A model generated the notes under the pieces. That model was not told the origin of the DNA. It ran no database searches and saw only the letters and a program-made list of their open reading frames with translations. A program made the translations under genes and the position numbers. From Pavlovales sp. CCMP2436 (Eukaryota; Haptophyta; Pavlovophyceae; Pavlovales), in the NCBI GenBank assembly GCA_026770615.1, contig MU631407.1, forward strand, positions 102,047 to 132,927: DNA of 30,881 bases, read 5' to 3'. The stretch's first letter is position 1. Every line of letters starts with the position of its first letter. Shown piece by piece: positions 911-29,746 of this stretch.

Positions 911-2292
911 ATGGGCGGGGCCAGCGCGGCTACGCTCACAGCTGCCTTCGTGCTCGGCGGTGCGTTCCTCGCTATGAGTGTCGCGCAGCTCCGAGAGCTA
1001 TGCAAGGCGCGTGACGCCAACGAGCATGCAACGCAGGCCGCGCAGGCTGCTGCACAGGCGGAGGCAGCGCAGCTCCGCGCGGAGCTCAGCAGGGCGCGTG
1101 TCGCCAACGCACAGGCGATGCGCGGGGCCTCTCAGGCGGCAAATGCCACACAGGCGACACAAGCTGCTTTACAGGCGAAAGCAGCGCAGCTCTACACGGA
1201 GCTATGCGAGGCGCGTGGTACCACTGCGCGGGCGACGCAGGCCGCGCAAACCGCGTGGACCGCGCAGGCTGCTGCACAGGCGGAGGAGGGGCAGCTAAGT
1301 GCGCAACTGCGCAATGAGCGTGCCACTTACGCGCAGCAGGCGGCGCGCGACGTCTTTCAGGCAACACAGGCTGCGCAAGCCGCGGAGGCTATTGCGCAGG
1401 CAGAGGCTGCGCAGCTGCGCGCGGCTCAGCAAGGCGCGTGACACCAACGCACAGGCAACGCGCGACGCCTCTCGGGCGGCGCATGAGCCGGTTTGGCAGT
1501 GCTTCACTGACGGCTGGACGTCGTACGACAGCCGCATCGCGCAGGCGCTCGAGAAGGCGTACCAGTCGCACGCGCAGGGCGCCGCGCCAGTGCGCTTCTA
1601 CCTGAGTGTGAACCGTGCGATAGTCCCCTACCACGTCGACTTGTCAAGCATGGTGCAAATGCGGCTTGACCACATCACCGCCGTGCGCCCGATCCGGCGG
1701 CAGCTGCATCCCCGCGCGCAGTGGGCGGCCGCGCCGTTTGACGGGCCGGCCAAGTGGAGCATGCCACCCGCGACGGTGTGGGGAGTATCAGGCCTCTCGC
1801 TTCAAGTCGCCGGCGCAGGCTCGCTCCGGACGCGCGAGTCCCTCGAGCTCAACATCGCACTTGGTCACGTGGCACGCATGTGCGGTGCGGGCCAGATGAC
1901 GCTGCCTGTACGCGTGGACGTTTGTGAGGCGACTGCATCCGTGCGCGTGCGCTTCGAAGCGGCCAGAACCCGCCTGGGGGGCGGCAACGAAGAGTGGGTG
2001 TTTCACGGGACCGCCGACAACACCATCGGCCAGATCTTCCAGCAGGGCTTCATGGTGGGCGGCGACGGCGGCGTGCCTGTCGTGAACGGCAACGCAAACG
2101 GGCCCAGCGTTTACTCGGACACACTCCTACCTACTGCGCTCGGCTACGCTAGGGGCAAGAAGGTCATTCTCGCACGCGCACTGCCTGGCCGCATTGACAA
2201 GAGACGACAAACAGTGTGACTCGTGGAGCGCCGAAGCCAGGATGAGCAGCTGGCGCATCTTCCACTCTGGTGACCAACTATTGCCAGTGTAG
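911..2292 (+). pseudogene. Coiled-coil / WWE / PARP ADP-ribosyltransferase, frame-disrupted
   Basis: PARP-type enzymes transfer ADP-ribose from NAD+ to proteins, and WWE domains commonly bind ADP-ribose chains. The product starts at ATG 911 with a hydrophobic stretch (about residues 5-24), possibly a signal anchor. Four to five degenerate Ala/Gln/Arg-rich repeats of 28-40 residues follow (themes AQLRAELSRAR and ATQAAQAA), probably an alpha-helical coiled coil. Next comes a WWE-like domain (about 1494-1710: WQCF, W..Y, LEKAYQ, VDLSSMVQMRLDH, VRPIRR). The PARP catalytic core (about 2000-2290) has HGTADNTIGQIFQQGF with the NAD-binding His, then a VYSD segment supplying Tyr, and ends near WRIFHSGDQLLP. 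The frame must change near 1424, where a repeat unit lacks about two bases, and again between about 2190 and 2206. The last frame meets TAG at 2290-2292, close to the expected C-terminus. No introns are apparent. It is either a pseudogene or an intact gene with assembly errors. The third catalytic residue could not be placed. Confidence 0.75.
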
Positions 2293-7314: not shown

Positions 7315-7958
7315 ATGTGCGGCATCGGCGTGGTCCTAACCGGCGCGCCCGTCCGCTGGGCGCCCGCTGCGGTCCCGGCTTCGCCCCGCCCCTCGCGCAG
7401 CACGCCCCCGCCGAGCTGACCGCCCCCGTCTCGGTGGCGCACCTGCGCCCGCGCGGCCCCAACGGCGCGCAGCAGCTCTCGCTCTCGCCCACGGGCGGCG
7501 GCGGCTACTTGGGCGCCGCGATCCACCTGACCGCTTCGGTGCTAGTCATCCGGGGCGAGGCGCCCGTGCTGCAGCCTCTCGTCTCCGCTACGAGCGGCGA
7601 CGTGCTCGCGTGGAACGGAGAGGTGTTTGTCCCCAGCTGCGCCCCACCGGACGTTTGCTGGCATATAACCTGGTGCTCGCTTCAGCCCAGCTCTTTCGTC
7701 CTCTCTCCCGCCGGCCCGTCCCTTGACCCCCCTCCCCCGTCTGCGCGTCAGGTGTTTGGCGGCCTGGACGAGTGCACGCGCCCGGACGAGGCCGACTCAC
7801 ACGCGCTCTTGCGCGCACTCGAGTGCGCCTCCTCTCCCGGCCTGGTCCTCGCGCAGCTGCGCGGACCGTGGGCGCTCGTCTACTGGCGAGCAAGCGAAAG
7901 TGCGCTCTACTTCGGACGCGATACGGTTGGAAGGCGCAGCCTACTGGTCGCACGCACG
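7315..7958 (+). CDS. ASNSD1-like N-terminal glutaminase-type domain (partial, frame-disrupted)
   Basis: The protein starts MCGIGVVLTG: Cys2 is where class II glutamine amidotransferases carry their N-terminal nucleophile after Met removal. Motifs then follow in the order of asparagine-synthetase-domain-containing protein 1: LRPRGPNGAQQLSLS, SVLVIRGEAPVLQPLV, WNGEVFGG, LRGPWALVYW and FGRDTVGRRSLL. A 129-nt intron (7623-7751, donor GTGTTT, acceptor GTCAG) splits WNGE from VFGG; its length is a multiple of three, so retention keeps the frame. The coding frame changes between MCGIG (stop at 7419) and RGPN, implying a one-base indel near 7360-7400 or an assembly error. After ..RRSLLVART the sequence reaches GTGCGG, a possible donor at 7959. 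I could not find the C-terminal synthetase half with its SGGxDS ATP-binding motif. The gene is either truncated here or its remaining exons are not visible to me. Confidence 0.72.
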
Positions 7959-7979
7959 GTGCGGGAGTTGTAGCCCGCA

Positions 7980-10439: not shown

Positions 10440-13400
10440 ATGGCACAAAACGCGGCGCTCATTCGCCCGAACCCCGCGCGCCCGGCGCCGGTCGAGGTCG
10501 TTGCGAGCTGGTACGGCTACACCAGCTCGAACGCGCTCACTGCATACGAGGTGCTCAACATCTCGCTCGATGCGGTGTCTTCCGAGCCGAGCATCGCAAC
10601 GCTCATCCAGGTGCAGTACCAGACGCTCAGCCGCTGCTTCCAACCCGACCTGTTCTCCGCCACGGGGCTCTGCTTTTCGCGCTGCAAGGAGATCATGCAG
10701 AAGCTCAATGAGGCAAACGAGACCGTCCGCGACGCTACCAGGCGGCGAGACTACAACATATCCATCGACCTCGACGTGCAACACGGCGATGGATCCTATG
10801 GAATGCCTGGCAGCATCAACGTGGCTCTGCTGCAGGGCGCCTACGGTCAGGTCCTCGTGGCGATATCTAAGCTCGGCGACATGGAGTTGAAGTTGCCATC
10901 GATTGTCGTCGTGGGCTACGAATCAGACGGTCCGTGTGGGCACGCTCGCTCGCATGCTATTCTCTTGCAAAATCTCTTGGTCTATTTCGCCACTCATCCC
11001 CCCCCCCNNNNNNNNNNCCCCCCCCTCCATGAAGGCAAGAGCTCGACGCTGGAGCGCCTCGCCATGCGCTCAGCCTTCCCGTGCGGGGTGGAATTCACGA
11101 CCTGAATGCCCATCCACATGAGACTTCGCTTCCGGAGGCACGAGGTAACACTAATAACGTATGCATGGGCAGCAGCGCTTTGGATATAATATATATATAC
11201 ATACATATATACATATTAAAATATATATTAAAAAGCTCATAAAGGCAGCTTCGAGCTCATCAGCGACCAACGCCTGCAGTGGAATTTTTTCCTTTTCTAT
11301 TTGCCATCTCCGCCCTCCGCCCTCTCCCTAACTTCGTCTGCTGTCGGGAATAACAGACCTTACCATAGCAGCGCCGCGTGCGTAGACTTATGTCTATTGA
11401 ATCGCCTGGCCCTATGTAACGTCCGTCACTACCCCTTGTCACTTCCGCCCTGCCCTGTATAGAATGTGGTCGTTGTGAAGCACATCAGAACCGGTGACGA
11501 CGGCCAGCGCGAGGTGCTGCTGACGCACCTGATAGATGTCGTTGATGCCGATCATATCGGTTTGATGATACAGCGAATCATCCTCGAGGCGCACCCGAAT
11601 GAGGACGGGCGGCAGGTTTTCGCCAACGAGCTGATCGAGATCGAGATCCGGGCGCCCAATGGTGAGCTCGCCTCTATCGCGCTCTGCTCGCGAGCGAGCG
11701 CAGTCTGTGCGTGTGCGCTGGCCCGTGCAGGTCCTAAATGGTCTGCACTGCACATACTTCCCATACCCTCCAAACCTAGTACCGGACCTCGACCTCGTGG
11801 ACCTACCTGGCGTCGTCGCCGCTCCGCTGGCAGGTAATACGCTTACTTTATTTCTTCCATTCAAAGCTTGTCGTTAGCTTAACTATACATCTACCCCGTT
11901 TTTAGTACGCCCGCAAGTGCCATCTATATCCCGTCGCTGCCTTTTATAACGCCCACGAGCCGGTCTGCCTGCTGCTGTTTCCCGCCCGCTAAGCATTATT
12001 ATGCATGTCAGTTAAAAGTAGGTTTATATATATGTGTGTGTCTGCATATCTAAATTACACGTAACACCCGTTATTACCATGCATGTATAACCCTAATCAC
12101 CACCGTATAGTCCACCGGGCGACGGCGGACCTGGTACGCTCATACATCCGCAACGAGAACTGCCTCGTGCTATGCATTCTCCCGTCGGGGGTTGCTACAC
12201 TGCGTGGCTCGCCCATCCTGACAATCATGGATGAGGTGGCGACGAGCTCGCCCACGCTCTGGGAGCGCACAATTGTCATCCTGACGAAGGTGATGTTTGT
12301 CCCACAGCCGAAATTGTATTAACTCATACGCATTTTCGGGGGGGAGGAGTGGGTGGCGACCTCAATTTTGTGCTGAATTAGTTAAACCCATGTCCGAATC
12401 AGCAACTTACGGCAGGGACGGTATCCGTGTGCTCTGCAAAGGTCCCTTGATCCGAGTGTTTCTCAACGCTTGGGTCCGGTGGAGACCTGTCAGGGAATGG
12501 ACGTATTTCTAGATATTTTCACACTCAACTGTACCGTATCCCCCTATCAATATCAAGGTCAGCACGGGCAATAAGAATCCGTGACGTTAAAAACTTGAGC
12601 CACGTTTTTTGTGCGCTTCAATATAGTACTTTAAGCCAATGTAAAGCATTGTTTGTATGCAATTTGCTAAGTAGCTGAGTCTCAACCCCAATTTGCCATT
12701 ATACTTGTTGCCCGCAACCCCCTTTAAAAAGGTCGACACGGGCGACCGCGCGCGACTCGCGAACCGCCTCCGCCCGGGCGCAGGCGAGCTGGCGGGCATT
12801 CTGGCGCGGCAGATCGTGCCCGTGATCAACCGCTCAGTGGGGGACCCACGGAGCATCATCGACGCACTCGAGGACGAGCGGCGCTGCTTCCGCGACTGGT
12901 ATTGTTCTTGTTATTCTTTTTGTGTGCGTCTTCATATTACTATTACGATATCCATGGTATTTGTTATTGTAATATTAACATTGTAATAGCAGTTATTATT
13001 AGATATAGATATATGCTGCTGGCTCTACATCAGGAGGCTACCTTCGGTGGCTTGCCCCATGAGCGCACGACCGCGGCGAATCAGCAGACTGGCTGACAGC
13101 GCCCACCCACTCAACCCACCCACCCTTCATCACCCCCAATTCTTACCAGGTGCGCCGACTCCCAAAGCACATTCAACCGGGCCGACATGGGGGTTGACGG
13201 CATGCTCTCGCACCTAGAGCGCATCTTCATTTTGAAGCGCAAGCCGCGCGCAGCAAGGTCTCGGCCGGGCATCATTCCCGGAGACTTGGGCATGCGGTGG
13301 ACGCATGCCCGCGGCGCGCTACTACGCGCGCCCCCTTCTGCGCGCGAGCCGCGCGCAGCGAGGCCCCGGGCAAGCTCGACGCTTCCCGGATGTGCTGCCG

Positions 13401-15773
13401 ACGCGCAAGCCGCGCGCAGCAAGGTCTCGGCCGGGCATCATTCCCGGAGACCTGGGCATGCGGTGGACGCATGCCCGAGGCGCGCTGCAACGCGCGCCCC
13501 CTCCTGCGCGCAAGCCGCGCGCAGCGAGGTCCTGGGCAAGCTCGCCGCTTCCCGGATGTGCTGCCGACGCGCAAGCCGCGCGCAGCAATGTCTCGGCCGG
13601 GCATCATTCCCCGAGACCTGGGCATGCGGTGAACGCATGCCAGCGGCGCGCTGCTACGCGCGCCCCCTCCTGCGCGCAAGCCGCGCGCAGCGAGGTCCCG
13701 GGCAAGCTCGCCGCTTCCCGGATGTGCTGCCGACGCGCAAGCCGCGCGCAGCAATGTCTCGGCCGGGCATCATTCCCCGAGACCTGGGCATGCGGTGAAC
13801 GCATGCAGCGTGTGGGTTCCGCAACAGGTGGCTAAGGTATGTATGCAACCTCGTGTTTCCGCATTTCTTGTCATAACTATTTTCAATGTGCCTTTCTCAA
13901 TGTTCGCGTCCCTCTGTAATTACCACGTCAGCATAGCACACTTCTAGCTACCCAGAAATGTACAATAAAAACCGCAAGCGAGGAAGAATACCTAGCGTGA
14001 GTCTTCCTTGCCTACAAATTTGTTTACAATATGTGTCCGGACACACAGCGGGCGTAAGACTACGAACACTGCCACTTCTACCGCTGTGATCGCAGCCCAC
14101 GCCCGGATGCCTTCTTCATCGTCTGCGCCTGGGCGCCTGCCATTTTGTGCGCCCGTATTACCTTATATATTACTGATCGGGATTTAAGCTACTGACTGTT
14201 TTGAACATTGTGGTGGTCTGAGCACTGCGTCGCCTATTATATTAATGTAGGGGGGTTCGGGCTAGCGGTACATTTCAAGTTCAAGTCAGGCTGATCTTAG
14301 CGCTCCGACGCAGGCTCCTACGCGCTACGCCGAAGTGGGGAGCTGGTGAAGTGGTGGATGTTTCGGGCCTATTACATATTTTTAGCGTGTGTATTATTAG
14401 CGGCTCAGCATGGTTCAACAGGTGGTGTTACATATATGCCTTTGACACACCGCAACCATGCGTGATACCCGTCACAGCCCTATGCCTATCCTCTGCAGCT
14501 GAGTGAGCGGGCGGGGCGCGTGGTGACGGAGCTCAAGGGACTCGGGCAGGACCCCGCCGAGCTCAGCGCGGATGTGCTGGTGCGCGCGGTGGCCGAGGCG
14601 GCGCGCTGCGCCATGCTCCGGGTGATCATCAGCAACCAGATAGCAGAGCAGGGGGGAGAGGGGGGAATGTTCAGCCGAGCTCCGTCTAGCGTACCACTCG
14701 CTGAGCGCTGGGACTAGGTCGACAGCTGTGACTACGCCCACAGAAAGGGCGCCGGAGCAGGTCGCTGGCTAACATACGATCGCGCCCAGTTCGTTGCGGA
14801 GTGCCGGAAGATGTGCGAGAAGAAGTTCGTCGGTGTACCGCAATTCCTCGACCAGAGATCCGGATCTGGGACTCGTTTCGTCGACACCCGCCCTCTGAAA
14901 AAAGAATGGGCCACGAGCTACTTTCTTGACAATGATCTCGCACCGGGCATCGCGGGGCTCGTCCGTGGCGCTCTCGGCGATGCGTTCTCCGAGTTCGTAG
15001 GCTTTGACGAGCACGCGCTGGTCCTCCGGCGCTTTGGAAGCCTCAAGGAGCAGCTCATAGGCCGCGTCGACTCTGCGCTGGAGCAAGATACGGCGCGCCT
15101 GCGTGAGCTCCTGCGCCACCGCGCCGAGCTGGTCTGCGCGTTGAATGTCCATGGGAAACCACCGGACCCTGGTCTGCGCGGTGAGTATCCGGACCTGGCG
15201 GTGAAGCACTTCATTGTGCAGGTGTGAGTTAAATATTTCCCCTGTTCTTCTGTATGCCGTATGTAACTTGGTTCACCTATTACGAGGGGAGTAGATATTA
15301 TATCTACTCCCCTGCTACTACTCAATGTTAACATTATTCAGCAGTGTTTATATACCATTTTTTTTTTTTTTAGCTGTGTAAAATTTACGCAAAGTTAGGA
15401 TGATCATTGCCTTGAAAATAGAGCCCGTCATACCACTCACGACTAAAGAGAACACTACTGATCCGGCCTGCTGTACCCCGCCCGCTAAGCAGTATGTATA
15501 ATTTGTATGTGTTTGTTTGCGCAGCACGTCCTTTTCCCCTTCGTCCAGCTGGGGGACAGCCACATCCTCTTCAGCCGCAGTGGCTTGCTGCAGCCCACCG
15601 AGGAGGACGCGGAAACCGCGAGGATGCGGCTTGAGCTTTCGAAGCAGAAGGACAACATCGCCCGGGCGATCTGTGTGCTCGAGGAGGTGCGCACCCATGC
15701 ATTTCAGGACATTGGGGATGGGGGGAGGGGGGCTTTGCTTTGCTTTGCTTTGCTAAATGATTGGTGGTTTTGA
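10440..15773 (+). CDS. J-like domain / dynamin-family GTPase fusion, with two in-frame stops
   Basis: Dynamins are large GTPases that remodel membranes. My model has exons 10440-10929, 11035-11144, 11463-11661, 11780-11833, 12111-12289, 12732-12898, 13150 to a donor I could not fix (about 13260 or beyond), 14499-15221 and 15525-15773; splice phases agree except at the unfixed join. Residues 35-107 resemble a J domain (AYEVLN, then helix II with QPD at 68-70 in place of HPD, then LNEANETVRDATRRRDYN). A linker (LLQGAYGQVLVAISKL, MELKLPSIVVVG) leads into the GTPase: P-loop GYESDGKSS (159-167, split by an intron), switch VPDLDLVDLPG (267-277), and TKVD (343-346) across an exon join. The stalk is encoded from LSERAGRVVTELKGLG onward, and a GED-like C-terminus at 15525-15686 reads LQPTEEDAETARMRLELSKQ. 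TGA at 11103-11105 falls where dynamins have Arg in the TR(C/M)P region, and TAG is at 14715-14717. Both may be real lesions or assembly errors. The 3' end at 15773 is the simplest reading. Confidence 0.82.
11008..11017. other. Assembly gap (10 N)
   Basis: Ten Ns sit between C runs inside the intron that splits the dynamin P-loop codon. The true gap size is unknown. Confidence 0.95.
12474..12528 (+). repeat. Short dispersed repeat R4, copy 2
   Basis: Lies in a dynamin intron and matches 3541-3595: GTCCGGTGGAGACCTGTCAG, then ATGGACGTATTTCTAGATAT. The complement of its start is at 29840-29860. Confidence 0.6.
12554..12724 (+). mobile_element. 166-bp MITE family, degenerate copy 1
   Basis: Keeps the family order: left end with GGGCAATAAGAA, then a TTTTTTGTGC stretch, GCATTGTTTGTATG, AATTTGCTAAG and a right end with TTGCCCGCAACCCCC. 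Both termini are eroded. It lies in a dynamin intron, and its right end is about 7 bp from the AG acceptor of the exon starting at 12732. Confidence 0.75.
13245..13806 (+). repeat. 166-bp GC-rich tandem array, about 3.4 copies
   Basis: Units start at 13245, 13411, 13577 and 13743, exactly 166 bp apart, each with CGCGCGCAGCAA(G/T)GTCTCG. Every unit holds self-complementary words: GGGCATGCGGTGGACGCATG with CCC, GGCGCGCTACTACGCGCGCC, and CTGCGCGCAAGCCGCGCGCA. The array begins inside or right at the end of the dynamin exon at 13150, so exon sequence may have been included in the amplification. It is open in several frames simply because it is GC-rich; 166 is not a multiple of three. Confidence 0.93.
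13860..14240. other. Dynamin intron, no feature recognised
   Basis: AT-richer DNA between the tandem array and the exon at 14499. A GGTGGCTAAG/GTATGT word at 13826-13841 looks like a tiny exon, but its phase does not fit. Confidence 0.4.
14250..14333 (+). repeat. Dispersed repeat R3, copy B
   Basis: Reads TAGGGGGGTTCGGGCTAGCG, then TTTCAAGTTCAAGTCAGGCT, GATCTTAGCGCTCCGACGCA and GGCTCCTACGCGCTACGCCG. It lies in a dynamin intron and gives the fullest view of the family. Confidence 0.65.
15726..15752 (+). repeat. CTTTG pentanucleotide run
   Basis: GGGGGAGGGGGG followed by repeated CTTTG directly after the dynamin GED-like segment, within the presumed last codons. The final residues of that protein model are therefore doubtful. 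Confidence 0.8.
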
Positions 15774-16885: not shown

Positions 16886-19800
16886 CTATCGGATGAGTGT
16901 TATTGTTGTTGCTGGTGATTTATTTTGGTATCTTATTTGGATTTGTATATAAGTATCAGTTTATTACCTGCGCCCGTTGCGCGTTGCCGCCGCCCTTGCC
17001 GCCGGCCGGCGCGATGGCGTCAACCATCCATTCCTTGGCCGACAGCGCGGGGTCGGACGAGAGCGCCACTACGGCGAGCGCGGCCTTGCTCGCGGCGAAC
17101 AGCAGCAGCGCCTGCGTTATGATGATATCGCGCAGGAGAATATTAAGTTAAAAAAAGTCACAAAAAATCAGCTTTACGGTGGAATACCGCGTGACGTCGC
17201 ATGTAGGAACCAAGCGTAAGAATTAGCATTATTAGTTTCATAACTTTTCTTGTATTTTATACTAATGCTACAGTCTCGAATTCAATTTTAGCACGATTTT
17301 GCCGTTTCGTTTTTTCTGGTCGTTATACAGGCATTGGCTCAGGTCACCCCCGGACAGCTCTCAAGTGGGCGAAGACCATTCAACCGGGTTGCGAGGATTC
17401 CTGAAGGGTTATGCCAAAATTTGAAGTGTTTATTGATCGGTCTCGACGAGCTCTATTTTAAATATATTTCAAAATCTCTTTAAGTCTTCATAAGCGGGCT
17501 AAGGATCAATAACTAACGCGCGCCGATTTTAAACATGTTTTGAACCGTTTTTAAAACCCTTCCATCGCTCTGGATCGGTCCAGACTCGCAGCATCCGCCC
17601 GCCGCGATGTCGCTCCGCTGGCCGGAGCCGCTCGAAGTGCTCGTCGGCACAAGCGTTGATGACCTCCTGGTGCGCTTGCGCAAGGTGGACAATGTCTTCT
17701 CTGCGGAGACGGGGGGGCGCGCAGGCGCGCGCGAGTACGTCCAGGTGTCGCTCGGCTGCTGCAGGGCGGTGGACCCAACGAAGCGGATGCAGCTCAAGTG
17801 CAATACCTCGACTTCGCGTCCGTTGCTGCAGCATACGATCGTGCAGCTCGTTAACGAGCTGCTCGCAACGCACCGCTGCCGGGCGCAGCTCGAGCCCGAG
17901 CCTGCGCCGCCCGAGCCGGTGCCGCCCGAACTGCTGCCGCGCTTGTCGCGCGCGCGCTCGGAGCCGGTCGGGCCTCCGCCGCTGTCGCGGGCGCGCACCG
18001 AGGATGACGCAGGCGACATCTGGAAGACGTGGGATGTGCGTGATTTCAAGCGGCAAGAACAAACGTGGCGAGCGCGCGATGATGTGCCGATCGATGCAGG
18101 CAACGTTGGCGACGTGTGCGACGCGCGGCAGCGCAGAGTTGGGCTTAACCACTTGCGCACGGGTGTGCTCGCATCGCTGCATTACCACGCCGCCGGCTCG
18201 GCTGAGCGCGTTGTCGATCTCATAGTCGGTGCTGTGACGTCGTTCGGCGTCGGCGAGCGAGTCCTCGAGAGGCTCGAGGCGCTCGTGCCCGAGCGCGCGG
18301 CTAGTGGAGACGACGCGGCGGAGACTGCGCTCTACATGGTGTCGCGGGCGCGCGAGGCCCTCTCCGAGCTCAAGGAGTGCCAGACGGAGGCGCAGCGCGG
18401 CGAGTACTACGCCGCGCTCTGCAAACTCTCGCCAGAGGCGGTGGTCGAGCGAGAGACTGGAGGCATGGGGCGGCGGGTGAAGGCTGCGCTCGGCCTGCAC
18501 CGATCGAACGCAGTGTTCGACGAATGCCGAAAGATCCGCGCAGCTTTTGACGCCTCGGTCCGGCGCAAGGGGGAGCCGATCGCTTTGAGCGATAGCGTGC
18601 TAACGCGGAGCTCCACAGTCGCGGGTGTGGTGCGCGAGCCACGCCCCGATTCCTCTTGCACTGTCGAGTACACGGCGGAGGGCGTGAGCACGCTGATTGC
18701 GTACAAGCACGCTGGCCCCCCGACAAAGGGTGTGCGCTCTGCTGCCGCGCCGATCGGCGCGCCCGCCGAGGAAGCCACAGTGGCCGGGACGTCTGGACGG
18801 GCTGCTGGGGTCAGTGGGACTCGTCAGTTCGCGGCCCTCCGGCGACCACCTATTCGGCTAGCGCCTTCTACGCGCGCCGAGCGGAAAGACAAGCTTTCCG
18901 CTGCTGACGTGGCCAAAGTACACGCCTTCTTCTACGACAACGGTGCCTCAGCCCGTGCACGCGCGACCGCGTGAGAAGGCGCGTCGGCCTCAACCTTTGG
19001 CAAGTCGCGCAGGCGCTGGTCGCGATGCAGACTATGGACGCAATCTTCTCGCAGTTCCAGACCGAGAACGTCCTCTGCGGCACGGCGCTCAGCTAATTCA
19101 ACCTTTAAAAAGCTCGCGCCGTGGAACCTCCGGCGCATCAAATGCGAGACATGTTTGTGCCGTACTTGCGAACAGTACAAATGCTATCACGACGCAATGG
19201 ACACGGTGCCCGCCATCTTCTCCCTCCCAGACGCAACGCCCGCCGCATCGCCCGCTGCGGAAGCGCCTGCAGCAGCAAACGCATCACCCGCTGTGGGAGC
19301 GCCCGCCGCAGCACCTGCATCGCTCGCGGCTGATGCGCCAGCTGCCTCGCTTGGCAATGCTTGCTCAGACTACTCGAGCAAAGTCAGCCGCCTGCTCGAA
19401 TTCTGCAGGCTCGAGTCCAAGCGCGAACAGGTAATCTCCTTTGTGTGTGTGTTCAGTGTGTGTTGGAGGAGGGGGCGGGGGGGGGGGGGGGGGGTTCTGA
19501 CTCTGTTATGCTATACTATACTTTTATGTGCAGTATCTACGGTGTGGATTATTTATTACATTATATGCTTTTCGAATAACTACGATAGCTATGTCTTCTT
19601 CGTCGTCGTCTTCTTCTTCTATATTGCGATTGTTCTTAACTTGTTATTTGTATATATTCTAATTGTTATCTTGATTTTATATTTGATCGGGCCGACTCCC
19701 TCGTGTGCGGCGGGTGCGTTGCGGAGGCGGCCGAGGCCTGCGTCAACAACACGTGTTCGAGCAGCGGGTTTGGGGCACTTTGGAGCAGCCCGGTCGATGG

Positions 19801-22800
19801 GCTGCGGGCGCAAATCGTAGACAGCGACGGCCACATGCGCGCAGATGCGGCTCCCGAGTGGTCCACGCAGATCAAGTGGGACAGGTACACGAGCATCTCG
19901 TCCGAAGCGCCCGCCGCGCCATGGGACGGGGACGGTGACGCGGACCCAACTCCGTCGGGGGACAAGGAGCCTATGCGCCAATAGAGAACGGCCACACTCG
20001 TGGATTTCTTCGACGAATTTGAACAGCTGCCGGCGCGCAAGTTCGTTGAGCACAGACGGATCCTCTCGGAGCTCAAGCGCGGATCCAAGCAGCTCCACGA
20101 GCTACTTGCGCCAGGCTGGCTCATCCTAGACGTCGACTGGTCCGAGAACTACACCCTCGTCGGCCAACGCGAGATCCAGTCTGAGTACTGGACCACCAAG
20201 CGGTTCAGTCTGTTTATTGCAATCATGCGCTTCCTCTCCACGGCCGCGTGGATCGAGCGCTCGGGCCTCATCAAGGTGTGTGAGGAGGTAGGCGCCGCCA
20301 CGCGCCACCACCGCACGCCGCCGCCGCACGCCGCCGCCTCACGCCGCCGCCGCGCGCCGCCGTCGCGTGTCGCCAGGTAGATCGTGGCTGTCTGCTCTGA
20401 CTGCTACCCACCCTGCCGACCCCGAGGGCATGCATTTCGTCGAGTGGGACCCTGTGGCTGCCGGCAACGACCCCGACGCCCGCTTTGTCCTTAACTCGAC
20501 CGAGGTGCGCGCCGTCAACGTGAAGCTCAACGTGGTCCCGCCCGTTGGTCGGCCGCTTGTCGTCAGTCGGGCGCGCCGGTCGGGCGTGCAGCCGCGCGCG
20601 CCCGAGGCGCCGACGATCTGGGAGCTCCCCCGCAAAGCTCACGGCGAGATCCTCGCCACTCTGTGGTGATGGACGCTGCTTGTGAGCACCTTGCACGCGG
20701 CGCGAGTTCCGTCACGCACGTTGATTTAAGCTCCGCAGTAGTCGCATGTAATTTTAACACTTTTTCATATGTAATTTTAATAGTGCAAGTTAGTTAACGG
20801 GATTTGAGTATCTCGGAAAAAAGAAGTGGAAAGCCAATTTTTTAGTAATGTTCAGGAGATCCTGCCCACTTTTCGCGTTTGGCTTCGCGAATTAGGTTGA
20901 ATGGTCTTCCCCTGTCCGGGGGTGACCTGAGCCATAGCCTACACACCGGTTTATTTTTTTCGGACGTTGTTCAAAAGTTGGTATGTTGCCTTGTCAAGGT
21001 GTTAGCTGGGCTGTGTCCGAAGCGCAGATCGTGAATCAATGGCCTCCCGCGATCCTGAGCGGTCCACCGAGTCGTACTTTTAGCAGATTTTAAAAAATTG
21101 TACTTCATTTTTTAGTACTTAGCACAGAGCCAATAAGTGGGTACAGCTGGTGTGCGATGGGCCTGGGCGGCGCAATTGGCTTGTCCGGACCAGCAGGACT
21201 CGCACCGAGCTTTCGAGAAAGAACAGACTCCAAGGGCAGCGCGACAGCGCGGGCCCAGGCTGTCAGTCTTTTTAATATTGTTTAACTCATTCACTCGCAG
21301 ATTCTCGCAGCCTCACCAGGGCAAGCTCAGTCTTCGGGCTCGTGCCGGCCCACCATTATCCAGCGCAGCGCCAGCGCGCCAGGGAGGAGGCTGCTGCTTC
21401 TTCTTCTCGGGTAACCCAAAACCTGTTTGGGAATGGAGACGTGGCGGTCCCCTCGCGGCGTCATTTCGGCATAGACCCTCCCTTGGCTGTCAGCCATGGG
21501 CGGCCTAGCTGCTTCATCTCTTTGACCGGCAGAGCGCGTGCAATGCACCACTCCGCCTTTATCTGATTCTCTTAGTCTTCATCTCTTTAGTGTCCTACCT
21601 CTCTTTTGAATCTCGGTCGAGTCACCGTAGTGCGGGTAATTCTGCTATAAGTACGCTTGCCGTACTAATACATTTGTTCTGCAAGGCATATAGTGTTGTA
21701 CTTCAAGCTGGGCCGCATTACTCAGCTGCGGGCGCTGCTGTAGTAGGGGCTGACCTCTGCCAGGGCCCTACGCGTTCAGAGCATAGCTCACCTGCCCGCA
21801 CGCGCGGCCAGACTCGGCGATCGTGCGGTACGTCGAGCAACGTTTCGCCTTTGCTATCTCGCACTGCGCGACGCCGCACGCGTACACGGTCGCGCACAGC
21901 TCGAGCCGAGCGTCAACTGTGACAGAGCATCTTTATCGACGACTGCCAATGGTATATGTGAGCAGCAGAGGCTGAACTGAGGCGGGCGGATAGAGGGATG
22001 GAAGGGCGACACAGCCCTGGTGACTACGCGCCCATCACCAAGCCTTGTGCACCCCGCTGAGCACGACAACTCACGCGACAGCGCGCGAGACAGCGCGTTC
22101 CTGCTAAAAACGAAGAACTGCTAAAAATGAAGTCGAGACTGTTTTTTCTTATACTACTGGACTCGAGCGGAATAAATTATAAAACTACTACAGGGGATCG
22201 CGGGCAATAAGAAACCGTCTTATTAAGAAACTGAGCCTCTTTTTTTTGCATTGTTAGTATGTAATTTAAGCAACTTTAAGCATTGTTTGTATGAGTTTGC
22301 TAAGAAACTCAGCCTCAGCCTCAAAAAGCGCCGTTCTTATTGCCCGCGATCCCCTGTACTACTACGATGATGATGATGATGATGATGATGATAACTACTA
22401 GTATTACCATCCTTATTTTTTTCCATCTACGACTTACTTGAAGAAAAAAGGGGGCAGCAGACGGTGGGTGGCGGTTTCAGGTCGCGTGAACGCCCAGGCA
22501 AATTACCTAGGCGTTCACGCGCAAATTCATCTCATTATTACACGGGGGGGGTTGCACAAATGACCCCGGCGCGTGCAGACTGCACACGGTAACCTTGCGT
22601 CCGTGCGCAGTGGGGAGGGAGAGGTGGTGGGTTTAAATCCGAATTAGTGGCGCGATTCCGCACTGGGGAGGGGGAAAAGCTGTGGGCGGGACGAGGAGAT
22701 AGAAACTGTTCGCCCCTGCGGGTTATGTGTCGATAGAGCTCTGTTGTCGAATAGAGCCCTCCTCAACGGTCGGAGCCCATCTCGTGTGCCTCTCGTGTGC

Positions 22801-23147
22801 CTCTGGGGTTGACAACATACTAAAGGTAACTAACATTTCCGATCCTCAGCGTTCGGAAGCGAAAAGAAAGTCATGGTTCCCGAAGTGGTACACAAAAGTA
22901 AGTTGCATATTCGGGGATGGGGCGGCATACTAAAGGTAACTCGCCATTCCCTAATCTGCAACTGACTTTTGTGTACCACCTCGGGTTCGTGAGTTGATCC
23001 GGAGGATTTTCAACGGAATTTTTCGCAATTTCCCCCCTGACTGGCCACTAATTCGGATTTCGACCCTGGTGCTTTATGTACCGTGTTGGGCGCGGCCTCC
23101 TTGAAGGCGAGGCTCGCCGCGTCGGCCGCCTTGGCGTCCGCAGACAG
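16756..23147 (-). CDS. Alanyl-tRNA synthetase, C-terminal three exons (5' part not found)
   Basis: AlaRS charges tRNA-Ala with alanine. Visible here is the end of its C-Ala domain, in order of translation. Exon 23082-23147 encodes LSADAKAADAASLAFKEAAP then NT. Exon 16968-17111 encodes ALLLFAASKAALAVVALSSD, ALSAKEWMVDAIAP and AGGKGGGNAQRAQ. Exon 16756-16833 encodes GASRDATEMAKCVNAATAFA then TAKLS and TGA. All three joins are phase 0 with GT donors and AG acceptors. The KEW.....(G)GKGGG..AQ pattern and the closing helix A..FA..KL are hallmarks of eukaryotic AlaRS C-termini. The first intron (17112-23081, about 5.97 kb) is swollen by a DNA transposon, a MITE and an inverted-repeat element. I found no upstream AlaRS exons between 23147 and the eIF4A gene on the same strand. 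The gene is therefore truncated, or continues in exons I cannot recognise. An extra copy of the last exon is at 4281-4358. Confidence 0.83.
17607..20669 (+). pseudogene. Transposase-like gene of the 3.61-kb element, decayed
   Basis: The first ORF (ATG 17607, stop 18972-18974) has an N-terminal domain (LRWPEPLEVLVGTSVDDLLV), a Pro/Glu/Arg-rich linker, and a helical segment ending KLSAADVAKVHAFFYDNGAS. The sequence continues in another frame as RDRVRRRVGLNLWQVAQALV (about 18960-19090), then in a third frame as FKKLAPWNLRRIKCETCLCR with a Cys-rich TCEQYKCYHDAM. Each join needs a one-base indel. A likely intron is 19431-19726. The next part ends at an in-frame TAG (19982-19984), then continues LVDFFDEFEQLPARKF and LAPGWLILDVDWSENYTLVG, EIQSEYWTTKRFSLFIAIM. 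The LDVDWSENY motif followed by EIQS.YW....LF is typical of transposon proteins in which this Asp probably starts the DDE catalytic triad. After 20275 the reading breaks up in a GCC-rich stretch, and a last ORF (20367-20669) resumes with GMHFVEWDP. I could not place the other catalytic acids. This copy cannot make a full protein. Confidence 0.72.
19475..19620. repeat. G run and TTC-rich stretch inside the transposon intron
   Basis: A G homopolymer at about 19478-19496 and a TCTTCTTCGTCGTCG run near 19594-19620 lie within the presumed intron of the transposase gene. Confidence 0.7.
20944..22158. other. AlaRS intron sequence with weak ORFs
   Basis: Flanks the transposon on its right. Apart from a doubtful - strand ORF at 21327-21551 I see no gene. 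The GC-rich stretch 21700-22080 gives only Ser/Arg/Thr-rich shadow ORFs. Confidence 0.4.
21327..21551 (-). CDS. Doubtful hypothetical ORF
   Basis: Reads ADSQGRVYAEMTPRGDRHVS, then IPKQVLGYPRRRSSS, and ends in HEPED. The mixture of charged and aliphatic residues is more natural than on the other strand. I cannot name it. It lies in the AlaRS intron beside the transposon and may be a remnant of another mobile element. Confidence 0.22.
   Translation of the reverse strand: MVHCTRSAGQRDEAARPPMADSQGRVYAEMTPRGDRHVSIPKQVLGYPRRRSSSLLPGALALRWIMVGRHEPED
22191..22356 (+). mobile_element. 166-bp MITE, copy 3 (best preserved)
   Basis: Flanked by TA on both sides (22189-22190 and 22357-22358). The terminal inverted repeats are near perfect: CAGGGGATCGCGGGCAATAA and its complement at the right end. 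Direct internal words AAGAAACTGAGCCTC / AAGAAACTCAGCCTC follow the ends. Just to the left is the tail of an R2 repeat (22158-22188, GAGCGGAATAAATTATAA). An ATG triplet run follows at 22366-22392. Confidence 0.93.
22483..22521. repeat. Perfect 12-bp stem hairpin
   Basis: CGCGTGAACGCC at 22483-22494 and its complement at 22510-22521, with a 15-nt loop. No gene boundary adjoins it; it lies in the AlaRS intron. Confidence 0.8.
22635..23060. mobile_element. 426-bp element with 17-bp terminal inverted repeats
   Basis: AAATCCGAATTAGTGGC at 22635-22651 pairs perfectly with 23044-23060. Inside is a second inverted pair around GTGGTACACAAAAGT (about 22885-22901 and 22967-22981), and a direct pair CATACTAAAGGTAACT at 22817 and 22927. 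No target duplication is convincing. It ends about 21 bp from the splice donor of the AlaRS exon at 23082. Confidence 0.65.
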
Positions 23148-25439: not shown

Positions 25440-26087
25440 CGGGAGCTAGTCCCAGGTTTTTTTACCTGGGGGACCGCGAACGGGACCGGACGTTTTTTTA
25501 GATATTTACGCACATCGTCAAACATAAAATTATACGCCACAATTAAGACGCTTATTATCGACATTATTAATTATATTCATTGCAACTAGTTACCTTAAGT
25601 TTTGCAGGCTATATTGCCATTAGCAATTTAATCTATGACTATAACTAACTACTCTAGCATTAAAACGTTTTTTTTTTTTTTTTTTTTAGATAGTTATAAT
25701 CCCTTTTAATACAAATCATTATATTCATTTCGTCCGTTGATCATACTGTCAGAACTAAGTAATAATAATAACAGGCGCCAGTCGGGTTGTCGGCTCATCA
25801 CTATGCTGTGGTGTCTGTATTTATGATAAAAAAGTTCGCCGTGCCCTGAGCGACGGCATCGGCCCGTGGCCGAGGCCGGTAGGCGGTAGCACTGGCGTGC
25901 CTTGCTGGTCGAGAGTCTCCGTGGGAACTGGCTGCGCGGTATAGCTGCGCGCGCGCGGGCCGGATGCAGGGCCAGGGCCGCTGTTTTGTGCGGCGCGGCT
26001 TGGAGGACCTGGTCGGAGCGCTGTGAGAGCATCGGGCAGAGCTGTGCGGCTCGGGCGGGGGGCGTTGTGCGTGTGTGCGACTCTCAC
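25440..26087. other. Intergenic 3' flank of eIF4A
   Basis: An AT-rich stretch with a T run of about 18 at 25670-25687, then the GC-rich presumed 3' UTR of eIF4A. No independent gene is seen. Confidence 0.5.
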
Positions 26088-27788
26088 TTAGATCAGCTCC
26101 GCAACCTGAGCGGGCAGCGAGGACAGGGGCGGGGTGCGGGCCGCGTGAGCACGCAAGCGCGGGTGGCAGAGGTCGCGGAGGGGCGAGGCATAAAAAAGAA
26201 AAAAAAGAAGAAAAAAAAAGAGAGAGACTCACGTTCATAGGCATCTCCTCGATGTTGGTGTTGTAGAACTGCTCGATCTCGCGCAGCGTGCGCACGTCGT
26301 CCTGGGTCATGAAGTTGATGGCGACACCCTTGCGCCCGAAACGGCCGGAGCGACCGATGCGGTGGATGTAGTTCTCGCGGTTGGTGGGGAGGTCGTAGTT
26401 GATGACGAGAGACACCTGCTGCACGTCGATGCCACGGGCGAGCAGATCGGTGGTGATGAGCACGCGGCTTGAGCCCGAGCGGAACTCGCGCATGATGAGC
26501 TCGCGCTCTTTCTGGTCCATGTCGGCGTGCATGCTCGAGCACGTGAAGTCGCGCGAGTGCATGCGCTCGGTGAGCCATTCGACCTTCCGGCGCGTGTTGG
26601 TGAATATGATTGCTTGCGTGATGGTGAGCGTCTCGTACAGGTCGCAGAGCGTCTCGAGCTTCCAGTCCTCACGCTCGAGCATCACGAAGAACTGCGGCAA
26701 GCAAGGAGGGGGGGTCAGGTAGGTAAATCACACACAAGCCTCGGCGTTCCCATCGTAATATACAGCGGCACCGGGTATATTTAAACAACAACGGGCAGTG
26801 GCGCTGAGCTGGCTGCAGGCAAGCGAAGCAACCGGTCGGCCAGCCAGTCAGAATAGGCAGGAAGGCGGCTGGGCGCACCTGCTTGATGCCGTCGAGCGTG
26901 AGCTCGTCGCGCTTGACGAGGATGCGCACAGGGTCGCGCATGAACTTGCTGGTGAGCTCGAGCACCTCCTGCGGCATCGTGGCCGAGAAGAGGCCGACCT
27001 TGACGTCCTGCGGCAGCTTCTGGAAGACGTCGTAGATCTGGTCCTTAAAGCCGCGCGAGAGCATCTCGTCGGCCTCGTCGAGGACGAAGAACTTGATGCC
27101 CGATGGGTTGAGCGCGCGCCGGTTGATCATGTCGAAGACACGGCCCGGCGTGCCGACGACAACCTGCACGCCCGATTCGAGCCGGCCGATGTCGGCGCGC
27201 ACGTTAGTGCCACCGATGCACGCGTGGCACGAGACCCCCAGGTAGTCGCCGAGCGACATGACAACCTTGACGATCTGCGAAGCGAGCTCACGCGTGGGCG
27301 CGAGCAGCAGTGCCTGGCAGTACCTCGCGCCGACGTCAATGTTGTTCAGCACGGCGATCGTAAACGTAGCCGTCTTGCCAGTGCCGGACTGCGCCTGCGC
27401 GATCGTGTCGCGCGCGCCCATCAGGGGCACGATGGCGCGCTGCTGGATGGCAGAGGGCTTCTCGAAACCATAGGCGTAGATGCCACGGAGGAGGTCCTCC
27501 CTGCGCGCGCGCGGGCGGGGCGGTGGGGGAAACGGGGGCCAATCTTGTCAGCTCGTGCGCCTTCCACGCGTGCGCCACGAACAAGCGCGGCTCGAGGGCC
27601 GCCCCGGCCCAGATTCCCCGCAAAATACAGCATGCGTGCGCGCGCGCGCACCGGAGGCCCATGTCGTCGAAGTTGTCATAGACCTCGTGCCAGTTGGTCT
27701 CGATCATGTCGTCCTCGATGTTAACGGTGCCGCCCGGCCCGCTTCCCTCCTGCTCCTCCGGCTTGCGATCCTCATCGTTCTCTCCCAT
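26088..27788 (-). CDS. eIF4A: Eukaryotic translation initiation factor 4A (DEAD-box RNA helicase)
   Basis: eIF4A is the ATP-dependent RNA helicase of the eIF4F complex; it unwinds mRNA 5' UTRs in the cytoplasm. Four exons in coding order: 27652-27788, 26879-27500, 26233-26691 and 26088-26105. The introns have donors GTGCGC, GTGCGC and GTGAGT, and AG acceptors. The last exon encodes only VAELI and TAA. The predicted protein is 411 residues, close to the usual 400-415. All helicase motifs are present: [12 protein letters not shown] (Q motif), AQSGTGKT (I), PTRELA (Ia), GG and TPGR (Ib), DEAD (II), SAT (III), [13 protein letters not shown] (IV), ARGID (V) and [13 protein letters not shown] (VI), ending in [14 protein letters not shown]. 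An acidic start ([15 protein letters not shown]) precedes the core. The gene looks intact and is divergent from the FRAG1-like gene. Confidence 0.97.
26175..26230 (+). repeat. A/G-rich run in the last eIF4A intron
   Basis: AAAAAAGAAGAAAAAAAAAG-type DNA, which on the coding strand is a T/C-rich tract close to the GTGAGT donor at 26227-26232. Confidence 0.7.
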
Positions 27789-28927: not shown

Positions 28928-29746
28928 ATGGACGACGTCCCGCCGCTGGACATGAGCTCGCCGCTGACCCGGCTCCGCGGCGACCGTGTGCTGATTTGCT
29001 GCCTCGCCTCGACGGTGCTCACCTTTGGCGTCACGTACGCGCTCTCGGCCACCGTCGACACGCGCAAGATGCGCAGCCCCTACTTCTTCCTCAGCGAGAG
29101 CATCGACTACGCGCCCTCGTCGTGCTTCGGCTCCTTTCTGCTCTCGCCCGCGTGCGCACTCATGGCGTGCGTAACTCTCCTCCGCAAGGAACAGCTCGCG
29201 CCCGTGACGCCGCCGCAGCGCTTCTGGTGGCTTGGGCCGCTCGGCGCGCTCGGCGGGCACGGCGTTGCCAGCTTCCAAGTTCACAACGCGCCGATCGTGC
29301 ACTTCACCTTTGCAGGCATGTTCTTCGGTGCGATGACGCTATACCTGATCTGCAGCGTCTGGCACGAGCGTGCGCACTCAGTGCCGACTAGATCCGAATT
29401 ATGCGCGACGCTTCGGCTGATCACGGCCATTCTCGCACCGCTTCTTGTGATCGCAGCGACCGCATTGACGCCCTTCATGGCGGCGACCATCGCCGCGGGC
29501 GAGCACTTCGACATTGAGAATGACAGTGACATTCCCACCGGCAAGCGCATCAGCGAGTACATTGCTCTGCTTGCGGCGATTGAAATATGCATCTACCTGA
29601 ACCTCACGACCTTCTTCGCCTCGCTGCTGCCGGAGCTGCGCTCGGTGCACTTGGGCTTCAAGGTGATGCGGATCGAGAGCAACATCACCATTGGTGATGG
29701 CACGCTGAACGAGCCCTTCATCAACTACGTGTCCAACATCAGTTGA
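28928..29746 (+). CDS. FRAG1/DRAM/SFK1-type six-transmembrane protein
   Basis: A single-exon gene of 272 codons from ATG 28928 to TGA 29744-29746. Six hydrophobic segments are visible at about residues 21-41, 66-88, 99-117, 125-147, 163-190 and 214-236, for example VLICCLASTVLTFGVTYALS and FTFAGMFFGAMTLYLICSVW. The short N-terminus, a first loop with YFFLSESIDYAPSS, HFTFAG in the middle and the C-terminal tail agree with the FRAG1/DRAM/SFK1 superfamily. Members act in GPI-anchor remodelling, autophagy or plasma-membrane lipid organisation; which role applies here cannot be told. The N-terminus MDDVPPLDMSS has no cleavable signal. The gene appears intact and divergent from eIF4A, with a 1.14-kb repeat-rich gap between them. 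Confidence 0.75.
   Translation: MDDVPPLDMSSPLTRLRGDRVLICCLASTVLTFGVTYALSATVDTRKMRSPYFFLSESIDYAPSSCFGSFLLSPACALMACVTLLRKEQLAPVTPPQRFWWLGPLGALGGHGVASFQVHNAPIVHFTFAGMFFGAMTLYLICSVWHERAHSVPTRSELCATLRLITAILAPLLVIAATALTPFMAATIAAGEHFDIENDSDIPTGKRISEYIALLAAIEICIYLNLTTFFASLLPELRSVHLGFKVMRIESNITIGDGTLNEPFINYVSNIS

What the first reader, a model, noticed from the sequence alone, without database searches (positions are those of the whole stretch)
17330..20939. A complete 3.61-kb DNA transposon of unassigned type nested in an alanyl-tRNA synthetase intron
The sequence shows matching 28-bp terminal inverted repeats (two mismatches), a second inverted block GAAGACCATTCAACC just inside both ends, and TACA directly outside both ends. 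One transposase-like gene fills the interior, and the flanking AlaRS exons (23082-23147 and 16968-17111) join in phase across it. GGC termini with a 4-bp TACA duplication do not match any superfamily I can name with confidence, so this may be an undescribed lineage.
Basis: partly seen in the sequence, partly recalled or inferred. Interest (0 to 1): 0.82.

Follow-up and report, generated by a model that had tools for sequence, protein, structure and literature searches.

The report
Broken copy of an unnamed transposon
The stretch is a real jumping gene with intact ends but a broken engine: a shortened copy of a transposon family in a marine alga, whose transposase is shared by other plankton and matched no named protein family in the libraries searched here.

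Summary
Window 17330-20939 is a DNA transposon with 28-bp TIRs (two mismatches) and a 4-bp TSD. Its 119-Mb host genome (unnamed; probably Pavlovales sp. CCMP2436) has 407 TIR-end matches, reversed control 0. Of 25 pairings of ends, 14 show an exact 4-bp repeat, all different sequences, so TACA is no target motif. Two copies have paralogous empty sites.

The 3.61-kb form is an internally deleted derivative: full-length copies are about 4.78 kb, and the missing ~1.2 kb encodes 385 residues with two of three predicted catalytic aspartates. Seven fetched loci share that junction. The window copy also has two frameshifts, a stop and a lost splice acceptor.

The transposase has a predicted RNase H fold, a DDD triad and a Tudor/SH3-like insert. 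Homologues occur in haptophytes, a diatom and metagenomes; no significant Pfam, NCBIfam, PHROGs or PDB-sequence match was found. It works most like Sola (DDD, 4-bp TSD); membership could not be tested.

The parts
17326..17329 (.). left copy of the 4-bp target-site duplication, TACA
   Evidence: sequence; 4-bp length confirmed on other copies
17330..17357 (+). 5' terminal inverted repeat, 28 bp
   Evidence: the repeat finder pair I1; end consensus of 68 ends
17371..17385 (+). 5' subterminal block GAAGACCATTCAACC, at +42 (candidate transposase-binding site; role inferred)
   Evidence: pair I4; same position in 34 of 38 5' ends
17607..19430 (+). exon 1 of the transposase gene: N-terminal region and CxCxxC motif; two frameshifts in this copy
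   Evidence: frames, P0011 alignment, comparison of copies; exon end inferred from the P0011 transcript product
19431..19690 (+). intron 1; acceptor AG lost in this copy
   Evidence: P0011 alignment; GG here against AG in the other 15 of 16 copies shown
19691..20287 (+). exon 2: second Cys cluster, one in-frame stop, and first catalytic strand DVDWSEN with predicted D1 codon at 20135-20137
   Evidence: D1 from model and alignment
20288..20408 (+). start of intron 2 up to the deletion junction (about 20406-20409); its acceptor and the ~1.2-kb catalytic exon part with D2 and D3 are missing
   Evidence: anchor distances 19 nt here against 1200-1228 nt in six and 1021 nt in one other locus; P0011 residues 476-860 absent
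20409..20669 (+). remnant of the last exon (C-terminal tail, to the stop codon)
20895..20909 (-). 3' subterminal block, at +31 from the 3' end
   Evidence: pair I4; start at +31 in 14 of 27 3' ends, no full match in 12
20912..20939 (-). 3' terminal inverted repeat, 28 bp
   Evidence: pair I1
20940..20943 (.). right copy of the 4-bp target-site duplication, TACA
   Evidence: sequence
16968..17111 (-). host exon resembling the end of the AlaRS C-terminal domain
   Evidence: joined with 23082-23147; alone no match
23082..23147 (-). host exon upstream of the intron that holds the element

Best explanation
A non-autonomous, internally deleted member of a cut-and-paste DNA transposon family of a haptophyte alga. 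Shown from sequence: 28-bp TIRs with subterminal blocks, a 4-bp TSD of varied sequence, paralogous empty sites, full-length relatives of about 4.78 kb, and a ~1.2-kb deletion shared by seven fetched loci that removes two of the three predicted catalytic aspartates. Predicted by modelling: the full-length family encodes a DDD transposase with an RNase H fold and a Tudor/SH3-like insert. Inferred: this enzyme binds TIR and subterminal blocks at both ends, cuts the element out, and joins it to target strands 4 bp apart, gap filling giving the TSD; one copy suffered the deletion, and its descendants were spread in trans by transposase from full-length copies; the window copy landed antisense in an intron and has since decayed.
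Against: 9 distinct elements have no exact 4-bp repeat at their ends (two do if an indel in the end is read through, by eye). Movement in trans and transposase activity are not tested. Foldseek alone gave no match at E <= 0.001. No single fetched copy was shown to have the whole gene intact.
Confidence: 0.93

Rival explanations
1. The family belongs to the known Sola superfamily as a divergent branch beside Sola1, Sola2 and Sola3. This concerns its classification and not its mechanism.
For: Sola is described as DDD transposase with 4-bp TSD (passages of PMC10741241 and PMC3627910); both are seen or predicted here. One homologue, P0024, has a sub-threshold DUF7869 match (E 0.038) over the D2 segment; that DUF7869 is related to Sola is only my guess.
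Against: No Sola sequence was available, so no similarity is shown. DUF7869 was seen in 1 of 31 scanned members of A3 and not among the 25 families shown of 33 for the 62 members of A5.
Confidence: 0.3
2. The family belongs to another described superfamily whose TSD can be 4 bp (Ginger, piggyBac, Academ, Kolobok), too diverged for the profiles used.
For: Ginger (4-6 bp), piggyBac (4 bp) and AcademX (3-4 bp) make such TSDs; the core resembles retroviral integrase in fold.
Against: Ends are GGC..GCC, not TG..CA (Ginger) or CC..GG (piggyBac); the TSD is not one fixed sequence; no integrase or transposase family of Pfam appears among the listed matches. Academ and Kolobok sequences were not compared.
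Confidence: 0.08
3. The 3.61-kb unit is itself the complete autonomous element, and the longer copies carry a secondary insertion.
For: Several copies of the short form exist with identical structure.
Against: The 1.2-kb segment continues the same reading frame in L019 (open over 457 residues), is present in the P0011 transcript product and in distant homologues, and carries D2 and D3, which are conserved in 62 of 62 rows.
Confidence: 0.01

Closest known systems
Sola superfamily (Sola1-3)
   Same: 4-bp TSD, and DDD triad (predicted here); described sizes of 2-9 kb fit (PMC10741241 passage)
   Different: No sequence relation shown. Sola2 examples have AT-rich 4-bp TSDs, while here CAGG and TGGG also occur. 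Tudor/SH3-like insert not known to me for Sola (recalled, no call).
Tc1/mariner (Mos1, Metnase) and retroviral integrases
   Different: Tc1/mariner has a TA TSD; no sequence match in Pfam or PDB; third acid is D; inserted barrel between strands 2 and 3
Non-autonomous deletion derivatives of DNA transposons (Ds type, recalled)
   Same: Intact ends, internal deletion, many copies, beside full-length relatives
   Different: Nothing unusual except the transposase family behind it
KDZ / Zisupton transposons (also known from algae and fungi)
   Same: Cysteine clusters upstream of the catalytic domain (by eye; the resemblance is recalled)
   Different: Zisupton makes 8-bp TSDs (PMC12730594 passage); no KDZ or CxC Pfam family among the listed matches

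Membership tests
Cut-and-paste (TIR) DNA transposon | terminal inverted repeats and a fixed-length TSD | tested here: met
Cut-and-paste (TIR) DNA transposon | DDE/D transposase with RNase H fold in the family | tested here: met
   predicted models and conserved aspartates; activity not tested
Sola | 4-bp TSD | tested here: met
   14 of 25 end pairings exact, two empty-site cases
Sola | DDD catalytic triad | tested here: met
   61 of 61, 62 of 62 and 62 of 62 rows with D; rows were chosen by me
Sola | transposase sequence converges with Sola in iterated search (Repbase rule, PMC4455052) | not testable with these tools
   no Sola sequence at hand; PF25273 genome search did not complete (first)
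Tc1/mariner | 2-bp TA TSD | tested here: not met
   4-bp TSD; rule from PMC10741241 passage
piggyBac | TTAA target and CC..GG ends | tested here: not met
   14 different 4-bp sequences, none TTAA; ends GGC..GCC; rules from PMC7351741 abstract and PMC10045372 passage
Ginger | TG..CA ends and integrase-type transposase | tested here: not met
   ends GGC..GCC; no rve match among listed Pfam hits; rule
hAT and Zisupton | 8-bp TSD | tested here: not met
   4-bp TSD; rules from passages
EnSpm/CACTA-Mirage-Chapaev-Transib | C(2)C and H(3-4)H between second D and last acid | tested here: not met
   no cysteine in the 42-residue D2-D3 interval of P0011; rule from PMC12730594 passage
Academ, Kolobok, Novosib | sequence relation of the transposase | not testable with these tools
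   no reference sequences at hand

The most novel reading that the evidence does not exclude
The transposase family behind this element is an undescribed superfamily of eukaryotic DNA transposons: DDD catalysis with a D2-D3 spacing of about 42 residues, a Tudor/SH3-like domain inserted into the catalytic fold between strands 2 and 3 (possibly a chromatin reader), a 4-bp TSD, and a wide presence in marine plankton (haptophytes, a diatom, metagenomes).
Probability: 0.45. Interest if true: 0.72.

Novelty: new variant of a known kind. Interest (0 to 1): 0.5.

Why it matters
Transposon libraries cover plankton poorly. This transposase family gave 282 protein hits at E <= 1, and none of the members scanned here had a significant Pfam match, so naming it would re-label hypothetical proteins and unknown repeats in algal genomes and metagenomes. 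The Tudor/SH3-like insert in the catalytic fold suggests a testable link between transposition and chromatin. The window copy itself is an ordinary but clear case of a deletion derivative that spread after its deletion.

Tried and rejected
Led nowhere: Pfam, NCBIfam and PHROGs scans gave only scattered sub-threshold matches; the one that recurred most was PknG_rubred, in 4 of 62 members, best E 0.043. PDB sequence searches with two pieces of the element's protein and with profile A6 (best E 0.16, ribosomal protein). Viral-contig scans with A4 and P0011 and a genome-contig scan with A4 confirmed no relative. The BFVD fold search had nothing at E <= 0.001.

Papers. Listings only: DUF7869, 0 papers; too broad to use. 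Passages only: PMC10045372, PMC3627910, PMC10741241, PMC5963040, PMC3706591, PMC12730594, PMC4455052, PMC9756366. Bao 2009 and Yuan & Wessler 2011 are not held; what I know of them is recalled. None of the passages seen describes this element; I did not read any paper whole, so I claim no proof of absence from print.

Rejected: a TACA-specific target; the 3.6-kb form as the autonomous element. L030 looked like an empty-site case, but its flanks match separate places. Of 15 flank comparisons asked for, 4 spanned the junction and 11 did not.

Selections to tell: fetched the 39 best places and the window locus, not a random sample. The 62 rows of A5 were my choice from 146 held proteins; 59 of them hold all three motif strings, against 82 of 146 overall, so conservation counts lean towards intact members. 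One search listed 120 of 282 hits. The N-terminal dN/dS figure uses only pairs with dS above 0.02.
Full report
Ends and host. The window is contig C101 of a 119-Mb, 703-contig genome. The close protein hits, at 90-97% identity over parts of the query, are from Pavlovales sp. CCMP2436, a haptophyte. That strain is the likely host but this is not certain: its published assembly is 165.4 Mb in 2,243 scaffolds (PMC9756366 passage).

Copies. A whole-element search scored 40 of 236 candidates and gave 95 matches. The first 22 bases of the end consensus occur 407 times with up to 2 mismatches, against 0 for the reversed control. Of 68 ends in the 40 fetched stretches, 38 are of the 5' type, 27 of the 3' type and 3 of neither. 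Both types start GGCTATGGCTCAGGTCACCCCC. The GAAGACCATTCAACC block (up to 4 substitutions) starts at +42 in 34 of 38 5' ends and at +31 in 14 of 27 3' ends; 12 of 27 have no full match. The 11-bp offset is about one helical turn; that it matters is inference.

Target-site duplication. Pairings of ends 0.8-6 kb apart gave 25 pairs, of which 14 have an exact 4-bp repeat. Of the other 11, two are alternative pairings within a locus and nine are distinct elements without a match. Two of these nine (L027, L037) give a 4-bp repeat if the end is read through a small indel (by eye); L009 and L039 share three bases in shifted register. The 14 sequences all differ, with A or T in 13 of 14 at each of the first two positions. 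I joined the flanks of 19 elements, leaving out one TSD copy, and searched them against the fetched stretches and the window. Two have paralogous empty sites: L016 (ATGC) against L027, 93% over 300 columns, and L036 (AACA) against L011, window 22628-23066, and L040, where the four bases read AACG. So the unit ends at GGC..GCC and the duplication is 4 bp.

The 3.61-kb form is a deletion derivative. In L010, L014, L019, L032, L042 and L046 the two sides of window position ~20408 lie about 1.2 kb apart. With two anchor sequences the distance is 19 nt in seven loci (L009, L012, L013, L015, L016, L038, and L048, the window's own locus) and 1021-1228 nt in seven others (the six above and L037); two bases of microhomology lie at the junction. 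L014, with both ends and an ATCA TSD, is 4778 bp. The missing piece encodes residues 476-860 of P0011, a 982-aa MMETSP transcript product (species not named) that is 89% identical to the window copy over residues 267-475. A shared junction at loci with different TSDs means that one deletion arose and its descendants then spread; L016, one of them, has an empty site. A second deletion class appears in 13 loci whose similarity to the catalytic part begins near residue 173 of the query (L023-L031, L033, L036, L040, L041). The window copy has further lesions: two frameshifts and a lost splice acceptor seen in no other copy shown, and a premature stop also present in L019 and L046, with a different stop in L032.

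The transposase. The catalytic part of L019 found 10 proteins, a first alignment 33, a second 282 at E <= 1, of which 120 were listed. Named sources are Pavlovales sp. CCMP2436, Chrysochromulina tobinii, Prymnesium polylepis and Thalassiosira oceanica; most listed hits are unnamed metagenome proteins. The strings DxxEN, SDN/G..FK and GHGKGxxDG all occur in 82 of 146 held proteins; the D2-D3 spacing is 41-45 residues in 71 of 81 measured, 42 in P0011. In a chosen set of 62 rows the three aspartates are kept in 61 of 61, 62 of 62 and 62 of 62. Between copies dN/dS has a median of 0.55 in the catalytic exon (192 pairs, 0.27-2.61) and 0.79 in the N-terminal ORF (330 pairs), as expected for a selected source gene with decaying copies.

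Known or new. No significant match was found in Pfam, NCBIfam, PHROGs or PDB sequences. The nearest described combination is Sola: DDD and 4-bp TSD. Repbase draws superfamily borders by PSI-BLAST convergence (PMC4455052), and I had no Sola sequence. A sub-threshold DUF7869 match in P0024 (E 0.038) covers the segment with D2, but the genome search planned with that family did not complete. So it works like Sola, with membership unresolved. I recall animal proteins with similar motifs; no call supports this.

Host site. The two exon peptides join in phase 0 into a stretch that resembles the C-terminal domain of human AlaRS (E 0.0098) and DHHA1 (E 6.8e-5, below its cut-off). The intron would be 17112-23081, with the element antisense in it. 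E. coli AlaRS finds no catalytic-domain exon in the window, and a DEAD-box helicase lies at about 25.8-27.4 kb on the same strand, so whether this AlaRS gene is whole is open.

Noticed in passing
window 22628-23066: A copy of a dispersed repeat, inside the same intron, that is the empty-site paralogue of the L036 insertion (77% to the joined flanks; also in L011 and L040).
   Followed up: partly
L016:3795-4429 and L040:4468-4932: Short elements of 635 and 465 bp with related GGCTAT ends and 4-bp TSDs GTTG and CATT (read by eye): MITE-like relatives of the same system.
   Followed up: no
L023-L031, L033, L036, L040, L041: A second deletion class of the same transposon family that lacks the region around D1 to D3.
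   Followed up: partly
window 25801-27430, minus strand: DEAD-box helicase exons (Pfam DEAD E 5.4e-41, Helicase_C E 3.1e-34).
   Followed up: no
window 13237-13806: Tandem array, period 166, 3.4 copies, 96% matches.
   Followed up: no
window 1299-2219, 7317-7973 and 28928-29746, plus strand: ORFs with a WWE domain, a weak glutamine amidotransferase match, and a Frag1/DRAM/Sfk1 match.
   Followed up: no
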